A DNA stretch of 64,000 nt from Liolophura sinensis (taxonomy: Eukaryota > Mollusca > Polyplacophora > Chitonida > Chitonidae). Below the pieces are notes generated by a model, which did not search any database, had not been told where the DNA came from, and was given only the letters and a program-made list of their open reading frames with translations. The position numbers and the translations under genes are program-made. Shown piece by piece: positions 57,601 through 60,900 of this stretch (its first letter is position 1; each line of letters begins with the position of its first letter). The DNA lies in the NCBI RefSeq assembly GCF_032854445.1, contig NC_088295.1:59811249-59875248 (forward strand). Direction: 5' to 3'.

Positions 57601-57727
57601 TTTCACGCTGTCTTTGGTTCTTAACAACAATACTTACTTTACATAGCTGTTCGCTTTGAGAAAGCTCCTCAAAAGGATGTCTCGAGTTACATTTTGTGCA
57701 TGCAAACAACGCAGATGAATCGGCCAT
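51697..57727 (-). CDS. FAM76B: FAM76 family protein (FAM76B-like, His-rich nuclear protein)
   Basis: Exons (minus, 5' to 3'): 57638-57727, 56691-56752, 56188-56248, 55781-55936, 54810-55300, 54264-54377, 52586-52748, 52210-52311, 51697-51786. Phases are consistent; 442 residues (human FAM76B is 339, from memory). Residues 1 to ~145 are Cys-rich with repeated CxxC pairs ([56 protein letters not shown]), suggesting metal binding. A long Ser/Gly/Lys linker follows, with a His-rich tract at about 239-254 (54908-54955), then a basic KKPKL that may be a nuclear signal, then a coiled coil (about 350-415) and [11 protein letters not shown] near the end. In mammals the His tract of FAM76B directs it to nuclear speckles. 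The extra length lies in the linker. FAM76A/B are vertebrate paralogues; this gene is probably pro-orthologous, and the His run favours the B name. Confidence 0.95.
52787..54263. other. FAM76 intron 6, mostly unique sequence
   Basis: The intron between exons 6 and 7 has no tandem array. A SINE tail fragment (minus) lies at 53998-54039. Small open frames (52571-52780, 53651-53875) are not recognisable. Confidence 0.5.
53998..54039 (-). mobile_element. SINE tail fragment
   Basis: A short match: tttttatttatttatttgat, tggtgttctacgccgtactc. The rest of the element is absent. Confidence 0.65.
55325..55538 (-). mobile_element. SINE, internally deleted
   Basis: Head, body and part of the tail are recognisable from ttttattgttgtgttacacc to ccatcctagccatggatgg. 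A segment between cagagccc and atccgcaggttgctgg is lost. It lies in the FAM76 intron just upstream of exon 5. Confidence 0.8.
56311..56462 (-). mobile_element. SINE, head-truncated, well preserved
   Basis: The body matches the consensus closely (gattggtgttttacgccgta, then cttacggccagagaggtaac), with a poly-T at the tail end. The duplicated words gtaacttcattt/agtaacttcattt on both sides (56284 and 56461) look like a target-site duplication. Confidence 0.87.
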
Positions 57728-57975
57728 CAGCAGATTTAGAATAATCTTTTGTTTTCATAAAATAATGTTAAAGCAACACTTGCAATCGGAAGTTACATAT
57801 TTCACAGGAAGCCCGTCTTGCGCAGTCGCATTCCATTAGCCAATCGATGCACTGTTTTTCTCAAAACTTCACGCGGTCGCGTATCCTGGGCCCAGTGGGG
57901 AAATCAACATCGGGAAAGAACAAGTGTCAAAATCCAGTGCCGTTGTTTCCATTATATAACTAAACTACGGGAGGG
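57728..57975. promoter_or_regulatory. Probable bidirectional promoter of FAM76 and CEP57
   Basis: Only 248 bp separate the divergent start codons (57727 minus, 57976 plus). The middle is CpG-rich compared with the flanks (cttgcgcagtcgcattcc, cacgcggtcgcgtatcctgg) and lacks an evident TATA box. It must hold both 5' UTRs and the start sites, unless untranslated exons lie elsewhere. Confidence 0.75.
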
Positions 57976-60900
57976 ATGGAAGGTCGCACATCATCTGTAA
58001 GTTCTGAGGAATGTACTAAATGTATTGCAAAATGTCTGCTTTGTCATGCGTTAGCAGTACGAGCTGAAATTCAAATTCCTTGTGCGGATTCGCCCTCTGT
58101 CAAACAAGCCCATTCATGTAAATTATTTAGAAAGGCAGGAACAGCGGCATTATTTTTGCACCGAATGATGTCCATTTACTACCATGAAGAAAATTTGAAT
58201 GAGTGAAGTGTACAGATGATACATGTATGGACCATGAGTCGAAAAACAAGCGTACGCTCGATCTTAAATGAAATCAAAACCAAGTTATGTTTGAATTTAA
58301 TTTTAAAGCTGCACATCCATGCAAAGACAGCAGTTGTCAAGTGGTTTATTTTTGATGAAAATGAAGCATATGTTTCCTTGTTTTAATTACATTATCCACC
58401 AATATGGTCATTGTGAGTTCAAGTCCAGCTGCAGGTGGTTGTGGGTTCCCTAAGGTTTTGCCTGGTTTCCACCCACCATAATCCTGCCTATCCATATAAG
58501 TGCAACTAATGGAATTTGTCACAATTAATAAATGCTGTCCTGTCACCGAGATCTTTGACGGGACAAACGACTAATTGTAGCTGTTTAAATTTGATTATTT
58601 TGCAGACTAATATGACAGACAGATCGTCACGGCGTTACAAACCAGAAGACACCATCAGCGTCTCTTCATATCACGACTACCCATCTCAGAAGCCCTTCAT
58701 TAACAGTGACTACAGACCACCCATCACCAAACGCCCCATTGCACAACCAGAAAGCAACAGAAATGGTAAATGAGATGATGCCATTGGCCCTGTGCCTTGT
58801 ACTGATTATGTGATTCTTTTGTTTAATTTCTCTACTATCGTTACAAATCACTGAAACAACAGCTTCGGTATGGTCCACATGTGTTTTCATTGATGTCACA
58901 GTTGACTGGGTGATTTTCTGTACTTTTCTCAAGATGATCTGAAAGGTTCAGACTAGTAGATTTCATTTGACACAGAAAGTTTAGTTCCCTGTTGCCCTTT
59001 GACCAAGAAATAATTCCTCTGTATTGACAATTTACGTCACAATCTGCCAGAAAGATGTCAGCTGGGAAAAGTGGTGATGTGCATACAAGACAGTGATGTT
59101 TGCACAATGGCAATAACTAAATATACATTACTGTTGTTATTTCCGCGGATGAGCATCTTCCAGTCCTGACCACATGTTGCTGAAAAAATAATGCTATTGT
59201 ACATGCCTTTGTAGAAAATTCAGTCAGTGAAAATGGACTTTAATTCCCTCATACGCCATCATATATAAAGCGAAATATTATTGAGGACGGCATATAACAC
59301 CAAATGAGTAATTTGACTATCATCTTTCTGTCTCTATATGCAATGTTTTACACTGGATTTCTTACCTGTCACATGCAACAGAACCTGTTTTATTGATCCT
59401 GTTACAAACAAATTTTATCCAACATTTTGCGCCCTGTTTATACAGATACTTGTACTACTGGAGGAAGAAAAACTAGACTGAATCAATGAATTCAAGTTGG
59501 CATCATTTTTTTATTTTTTATTTTATTTTGTTTCACAGCAGTCATCTCTGCTTTGAAAAACTTACAAGACAAGATCCGCAAGTTGGAGTTGGAGAGGACG
59601 TCTGCCGAAGACAACCTGAGGGCTTTGACAACAGAAACGACGCGGTACAAAGATATGCTGCAGAAGAGTTACCAGAGTGAGGGAGCCAGGCAGTCAATGG
59701 TGTCCAAACAAACTCAAGGTAATACTAGTACTCGATCAGAAAAGTAACAGGTGAGGTAATCGGAGCAATCTTTGAGGTCCTTTTCTTGGCATTTGCACAT
59801 GGCTCAAGGTATAAGCCTTGTACTTTTATCTGTGAATATATTTTGAGTAGGTCATATATCATGTCTGATTTCCTTAACATGGCATCATTGGAAAATTGTG
59901 AGCACATAAACAAACAGAAAAGCATGGAAAGAGTTTAATCATTTAATATTTGATTTTTCTTTATGCATCCATGTATACGAGAATTTGTTAGTTAAATAAG
60001 GCCAGGAGCACACAGTATTGGTGTACATTTTACAAGAATAGTTGCTTTTGTTAAAGTACATCGTGCATGTTGTGGCAAAAGGCACTCCATGGCTACTGAA
60101 GACACATTATCGTATATATGTTTCAGGAGAAGAATCAGTCATTGGTTCTAACATAGAACAGTGTGACAATATGCATGTTAAACACATGGTAAAAATCTGG
60201 TTAAGTTCAAAATAGGATAACTAGCTTAATACAGTGTCATCTGCACCCAAGTCACAAAATGATAAAGTCTTCATATAATGTTAGTAATAATACGATAAAC
60301 AACAGAAGCTCATTTAGACATAAAACCAGGTCACAAGCGAACGTTTATCTCTGGTGCCAACATTTGTGACCTGTACGATTATTTTGGGGGGAGATTCTGC
60401 TATATCGTGCTGGTTGTTTTATTGCTCCATGACAGCTTACCTCTGTTACATCATATCCAGTTGAATGTTTTCTCCGAACAAAATGGTTCAACCAACTGGC
60501 AATCCCATTGGCTGGAAAAATAAGTTAGCTGTTCTAAATGTGTCTAAGTCTCAGCTGAACAAGAAACATTTTAAGATGCTAACACAATGTTATGTTCTCT
60601 GTTTTGCAGCTTTAGAATCTCAGTTGACATCAGCAGAGACAAGATGTAAGGTGCTAGAGAAACAGCTGGACCACATGAGGACGATGGTGCAAGAGGCAGA
60701 GCACGGGCGCCATGAGGCAATTCAGAGCGCCGCGTGCAAAGCGCAGGACAAGAGGCAAGCATCTGAGGCAGATCAGAGATCACACAGGGACCAAATTTCC
60801 CAGTTGGAAAGAGACCGTGTCAAGCTAGCAGCAACTCAGAACCTAGCACAGGTAAATGAACATATAGCATCTTTGTTTAATTATTCAAATTAATAGTGCA

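What the first reader, a model, noticed from the sequence alone, without database searches (positions are those of the whole stretch)
57638..57996. FAM76-CEP57 share a compact 248-bp bidirectional promoter conserved with human 11q21
Start codons of the divergent FAM76 and CEP57 genes are 248 bp apart with a CpG-rich centre. From memory, human FAM76B and CEP57 are likewise adjacent and divergent. A promoter shared by a nuclear-speckle protein and a centrosomal protein over such a span is worth functional comparison.
Basis: partly seen in the sequence, partly recalled or inferred. Interest (0 to 1): 0.6.

Follow-up and report, generated by a model that had tools for sequence, protein, structure and literature searches.

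The report
Shared promoter of FAM76 and CEP57
Two unrelated genes, FAM76 (an RNA-compartment protein) and CEP57 (a centrosome protein), start back to back only 248 bases apart in this animal, as the same two neighbours probably do in humans, so they very likely share one ordinary two-way promoter that has held together since early animal evolution.

Summary
FAM76 (-) starts at 57727 and CEP57 (+) at 57976, with 248 bases between (57728-57975). Both genes are complete in gene model and found at a single locus in the host genome. The gap is the middle of a CpG-retaining stretch (observed/expected 1.08; window median 0.40; top 1.8%). It carries a CCAAT box, a near-palindromic NRF1-like site, an ETS-like core and an E2F-like site. 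Human FAM76B and CEP57 form one locus on chromosome 11 (literature) and are both listed as p53-p21-RB/E2F targets. Their divergent orientation in human is from memory. Best reading: an ordinary shared two-way promoter of an ancient head-to-head gene pair. Start sites, two-way activity and other molluscs could not be tested. The window thus carries four consecutive genes in two divergent pairs, which in vertebrates are split over 6q21 (with CEP57L1, SESN1) and 11q21 (with SESN3). The kind is known; the four-gene block is the more interesting part.

The parts
57728..57975 (.). putative shared two-way promoter between the FAM76 and CEP57 start codons (248 bases)
   Evidence: ATG-to-ATG gap; CpG obs/exp 1.08 against window median 0.40; transcription not tested
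57638..57727 (-). FAM76 coding exon 1 (30 aa)
   Evidence: Pfam PF16046 positions 1-24, E 3.6e-10; donor GTAAGT
51697..57727 (-). FAM76 coding region, with histidine tract encoded in ORF 54806-55330
   Evidence: Five exon matches to PF16046, one locus in the genome. The last exon (51697-51903) was placed by eye on the remembered human C-terminus and has no Pfam match
57976..57996 (+). CEP57 coding exon 1 (MEGRTSS)
   Evidence: In frame with exon 2 (58606-58765), donor GTAAGT, purine at -3 and G at +4; seven residues are too few for a homology test
57976..64000 (+). CEP57 gene; continues past the window to the equivalent of 65899; 476 aa, 9 coding exons
   Evidence: All introns GT-AG, open to a stop; Cep57_CLD E 2.2e-42 and Cep57_MT_bd E 1.4e-18; PDB chains of CEP57, E 3e-17
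57838..57846 (+). CCAAT box, full match to NF-Y consensus (AGCCAATCG)
   Evidence: about 6% chance in a 248-base stretch
57819..57830 (.). NRF1-like near-palindrome TGCGCAGTCGCA (10 of 12 of TGCGCATGCGCA)
   Evidence: 1% of shuffles, 0.8% of background stretches
57787..57793 (+). ETS/GABPA-like core CGGAAGT
   Evidence: not significant alone
57910..57917 (-). E2F-like TTTCCCGA (1 mismatch to TTTSSCGC)
   Evidence: not significant alone
57953..57958 (+). TATATA, only 18-23 bases before the CEP57 ATG
   Evidence: if used, the mRNA would start after the first ATG and translation would begin at 58612 in exon 2 (inference)
35144..44890 (+). RTN4IP1 coding exons, convergent neighbour of FAM76
   Evidence: PDB 2vn8 RTN4IP1 matched by two exons, E 1.6e-8 and 2.3e-6; ADH domains; the first exon occurs once in the genome
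23448..32110 (-). QRSL1 (GatA) coding exons, divergent to RTN4IP1
   Evidence: Amidase and gatA matches, PDB GatA; first coding exon not found

Best explanation
The 248 bases are a single divergent (two-way) promoter serving FAM76 on the minus strand and CEP57 on the plus strand. One nucleosome-poor, CpG-retaining core, centred near 57800-57950 and bound by general activators of the NF-Y/NRF1/ETS/E2F kind, would load two oppositely directed core promoters. It is the mollusc form of the human FAM76B/CEP57 head-to-head pair, inherited from an early bilaterian ancestor. It persists because a break would cut a promoter off one of two widely needed genes. Shown: gene identity, orientation, spacing, single locus, CpG peak, human adjacency (literature). 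Inferred: factor binding, two-way transcription, shared regulation, descent of the promoter itself.
For: Exact divergent arrangement with intact reading frames. Both genes at a single locus, so recent copying does not explain the adjacency. CpG maximum centred on the gap. Four of six motif classes listed for human two-way promoters (Lin 2007, as quoted in PMC8104967) are present, P 0.003-0.004 against dinucleotide shuffles and 0 of 507 background stretches. Human locus CEP57-FAM76B-MTMR2 and chicken linkage. Human FAM76B and CEP57 are both in the list of p53-p21-RB/E2F targets. Linkage context is conserved: SESN, OSTM1 and MRE11 are on the same 96-Mb contig and RTN4IP1/QRSL1 are next door.
Against: No transcript data. 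With strict motif thresholds only the CCAAT box remains (P 0.17). A fair splice acceptor lies 158 bases before the FAM76 ATG, so an untranslated upstream exon is not excluded. A TATATA lies too near the CEP57 ATG. CEP57 exon 1 codes for seven residues only. Orientation in human is from memory. General enrichment of short divergent spacing was not seen in fish or invertebrates (PMC2871058). A shared ChIP peak counts for both neighbours automatically.
Confidence: 0.75

Rival explanations
1. Two independent core promoters that merely abut. The pair is kept together because no breakpoint fits between them without damage; there is no shared activation and no co-regulation.
For: Strict motif matches are few. 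The two proteins have no known joint function. PMC2871058 states that only 8.5% of close conserved human divergent pairs are related by GO score.
Against: One central CpG peak rather than two. Both human genes are on the same RB/E2F target list.
Confidence: 0.17
2. One gene really starts elsewhere (untranslated upstream exon, or CEP57 translation from ATG 58612 in exon 2), so the 248-base gap is not the distance between promoters.
For: Acceptor-like site with 73% pyrimidine 158 bases before the FAM76 ATG. TATATA too close to the CEP57 ATG and an in-frame ATG in exon 2.
Against: That acceptor lies towards CEP57, so an upstream FAM76 exon would have to lie across or beyond the CEP57 start. CEP57 exon 1 has a good ATG context and donor. 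The CpG peak is centred on the gap.
Confidence: 0.12
3. The adjacency arose separately in this lineage and in vertebrates, by chance.
For: None found; other lineages could not be checked.
Against: Two given single-locus genes being head to head by chance is of the order of 1 in 50,000 for about 25,000 genes (estimate). The neighbours RTN4IP1/QRSL1 and chromosome-mates SESN/OSTM1/MRE11 match the human 6q21/11q21 contents.
Confidence: 0.03

Closest known systems
Human FAM76B/CEP57 locus, 11q21
   Same: Same two genes adjacent (PMC6442001); divergent, from memory; His tract present in FAM76B as in the mollusc protein
   Different: Human has FAM76A and CEP57L1 elsewhere; the human neighbour MTMR2 is not next door here (myotubularins on C3, C6, C8, C10)
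RTN4IP1/QRSL1 divergent pair (human, 80 bases apart; PMC2871058 Table 2)
   Same: Ancient divergent pair, and the immediate neighbour in this window
   Different: Coding starts lie about 3 kb apart here, with no compact gap identified
FOXM1/RHNO1 two-way promoter (PMC8104967)
   Same: Cell-cycle gene sharing a promoter with an unrelated partner; candidate factors E2F, NRF-1, CCAAT, GABPA
   Different: That promoter was tested by experiment; this one was not

Membership tests
Two-way (bidirectional) promoter, divergent genes under 1 kb apart | Two protein genes head to head | tested here: met
   FAM76 (-) 57727, CEP57 (+) 57976
Two-way (bidirectional) promoter, divergent genes under 1 kb apart | Transcription starts less than 1 kb apart | not testable with these tools
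   Start codons 248 bases apart; no RNA data
Two-way (bidirectional) promoter, divergent genes under 1 kb apart | CpG-retaining core | tested here: met
   CpG obs/exp 1.08 against 0.40, top 1.8%
Two-way (bidirectional) promoter, divergent genes under 1 kb apart | Motif set GABPA, MYC, E2F, NRF1, CCAAT, YY1 | tested here: inconclusive
   4 of 6 with loose thresholds (P 0.003), 1 of 6 with strict (P 0.17)
Two-way (bidirectional) promoter, divergent genes under 1 kb apart | Drives expression in both directions | not testable with these tools
   needs a reporter or strand-specific start mapping
FAM76B/CEP57 conserved pair | Orthologous genes adjacent in vertebrates | tested here: met
   PMC6442001, PMC7402339; orientation from memory
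FAM76B/CEP57 conserved pair | Linked in other invertebrates | not testable with these tools
   No other animal genome held; two collection scans found none
CEP57 family | Centrosome localisation and microtubule-binding domains | tested here: met
   PF14073 E 2.2e-42, PF06657 E 1.4e-18
FAM76 family | PF16046 over the gathering score | tested here: met

The most novel reading that the evidence does not exclude
QRSL1-RTN4IP1-FAM76-CEP57 is an intact ancestral bilaterian four-gene block with two shared promoters. The genome doublings of vertebrates split it reciprocally: 6q21 kept QRSL1/RTN4IP1 and CEP57L1 and lost FAM76, while 11q21 kept FAM76B/CEP57. The FAM76-CEP57 promoter would be an old module tying a nuclear-speckle protein to the cell-cycle (E2F/RB) programme of a centrosome protein.
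Probability: 0.25. Interest if true: 0.5.

Novelty: new member of a known kind. Interest (0 to 1): 0.35.

Why it matters
If the promoter and not only the gene order is old, this is a compact test case for why unrelated genes stay paired over more than 500 million years: promoter sharing or useful co-regulation. It also hints that FAM76, little studied outside inflammation, belongs to the cell-cycle gene set. The four-gene block supplies an outgroup order for the 6q21/11q21/1p35 paralogous regions.

Tried and rejected
DNA match to plasmids: none, as expected. Viral and prokaryote contig scans for stray animal contigs with FAM76: none confirmed. Literature for an explicit FAM76B/CEP57 two-way promoter: none held in open main texts; the 924-pair Table S5 of PMC2871058 may list it but supplements could not be read. 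A second copy of the interval that would show variation: none. A QRSL1 coding exon 1 near RTN4IP1: two weak candidates, both in a repeat, not accepted. MTMR2 and CWC15 as conserved close neighbours: rejected. Chance convergence of the adjacency: rejected on odds.

Full report
What is there. The host is a 609-Mb animal assembly with 632 contigs; the window lies on contig C1 (96.4 Mb) at 59.81-59.88 Mb. FAM76 exon 1 (57638-57727, minus) and CEP57 exon 1 (57976-57996, plus) face away from each other with 248 bases between their start codons. The FAM76 Pfam model begins to match at residue 7 of exon 1 and runs to the donor GTAAGT, so this start is firm. The CEP57 start rests on a seven-residue exon, in frame, with a good ATG context and donor GTAAGT. 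Exon 2 continues with SSYHDYPSQKPFINSDYRPP, which I recognise from the N-terminus of human CEP57 (memory). The full CEP57 model has 9 exons, all GT-AG, 476 aa, with both CEP57 domains and matches to solved CEP57 chains. FAM76 and CEP57 each match one locus in the genome.

Is it more than chance? The gap has CpG observed/expected 1.08 against a window median of 0.40, reached by 1.8% of stretches, and is the centre of a 57576-58300 peak. Other peaks exist in the window, so the CpG signal alone is not proof of a promoter. Of the motif classes reported for human two-way promoters (GABPA, MYC, E2F, NRF-1, CCAAT, YY1; quoted in PMC8104967), four occur with loose thresholds (P 0.003-0.004 against shuffles; 0 of 507 background stretches), but only the CCAAT box with strict ones (P 0.17). 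I count this as suggestive. The best single items are the NRF1-like near-palindrome at 57819-57830 and the NF-Y box at 57838-57846.

Conservation of the arrangement. Human papers name a CEP57-FAM76B-MTMR2 locus on chromosome 11 (PMC6442001); chicken has FAM76B, CEP57, MTMR2, SESN3, MRE11 and CWC15 in one megabase (PMC7402339). That the human genes are divergent with starts tens of bases apart is from memory. Here MTMR2-like genes and CWC15 are on other contigs, while sestrin, MRE11 and OSTM1 are on the same contig but 13-33 Mb away. The general neighbourhood has been reshuffled within the chromosome, yet FAM76 and CEP57 remain 248 bases apart. That contrast is the best argument for constraint on the pair.

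The neighbours. Left of FAM76 lie RTN4IP1 (plus; exons 35144-44890) and QRSL1 (minus; exons 23448-32110). RTN4IP1/QRSL1 is in the list of the ten most conserved human divergent pairs, 80 bases apart (PMC2871058 Table 2). The four genes are consecutive as far as I could see, in two divergent pairs. In human, RTN4IP1/QRSL1 are at 6q21 (PMC9318831); CEP57L1 is also on 6q, close to SESN1 (memory for the latter). FAM76A and SESN2 fall in one 1p35 gene list (PMC8269103). The simplest account is one ancestral region with SESN, QRSL1-RTN4IP1, FAM76 and CEP57, copied by the vertebrate genome doublings and thinned reciprocally. I did not build trees.

Function. Human FAM76B and CEP57 are both listed as genes regulated by p53-p21-RB signalling, selected for RB/E2F1 promoter binding and repression after p53 activation (PMC9090780); the per-gene marks were not readable, and one shared ChIP peak would count for both. 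It fits a shared cell-cycle promoter. The mollusc gap has only a one-mismatch E2F-like site, so conservation of that control is a hypothesis. The mechanism I favour is a single open core with general activators and two outward core promoters. Steps from factor binding onwards are inferred.

Limits. No RNA data, no second mollusc, no human DNA alignment, supplements closed. An untranslated exon for FAM76 cannot be excluded.

Noticed in passing
23448-44890: QRSL1 (-) and RTN4IP1 (+), a top-ten conserved human divergent pair, lie next to FAM76/CEP57; coding starts are about 3 kb apart here, with a CpG peak at 33201-33475 between them.
   Followed up: partly
54806-55330 (-): Mollusc FAM76 has a histidine tract ([16 protein letters not shown]) where human FAM76B has its speckle-targeting tract. 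PMC2644819 infers that such tracts generally arose after vertebrate gene duplication, with FAM76A lacking one; here either the tract is ancestral and lost in FAM76A, or it arose twice.
   Followed up: partly
G000 C1: 27.10, 39.50, 46.64, 59.8 Mb: MRE11, OSTM1, sestrin and the window's genes share one 96-Mb contig, matching contents of human 11q21 and 6q21; CWC15 is on C12.
   Followed up: partly
57953-57958: TATATA 18-23 bases before the CEP57 ATG; if used, the mRNA would start past the first ATG and translation would begin at 58612.
   Followed up: no
56320-56460; 34850-35060; many others: A dispersed repeat (GGCGGCCAGCATTATGGTGGG...GGCAGAGCCCGG...) occurs in introns and near genes throughout the window.
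   Followed up: no
62882-63403; 45936-46440; 50421-51063: Tandem repeats with long open frames in several frames, in a CEP57 intron and between RTN4IP1 and FAM76; probably not coding.
   Followed up: no
17451-18750: Strongest CpG peak of the window (22 CpG, obs/exp up to 1.42) with no gene assigned; the nearby ORF 19953-20486 has no Pfam match.
   Followed up: no
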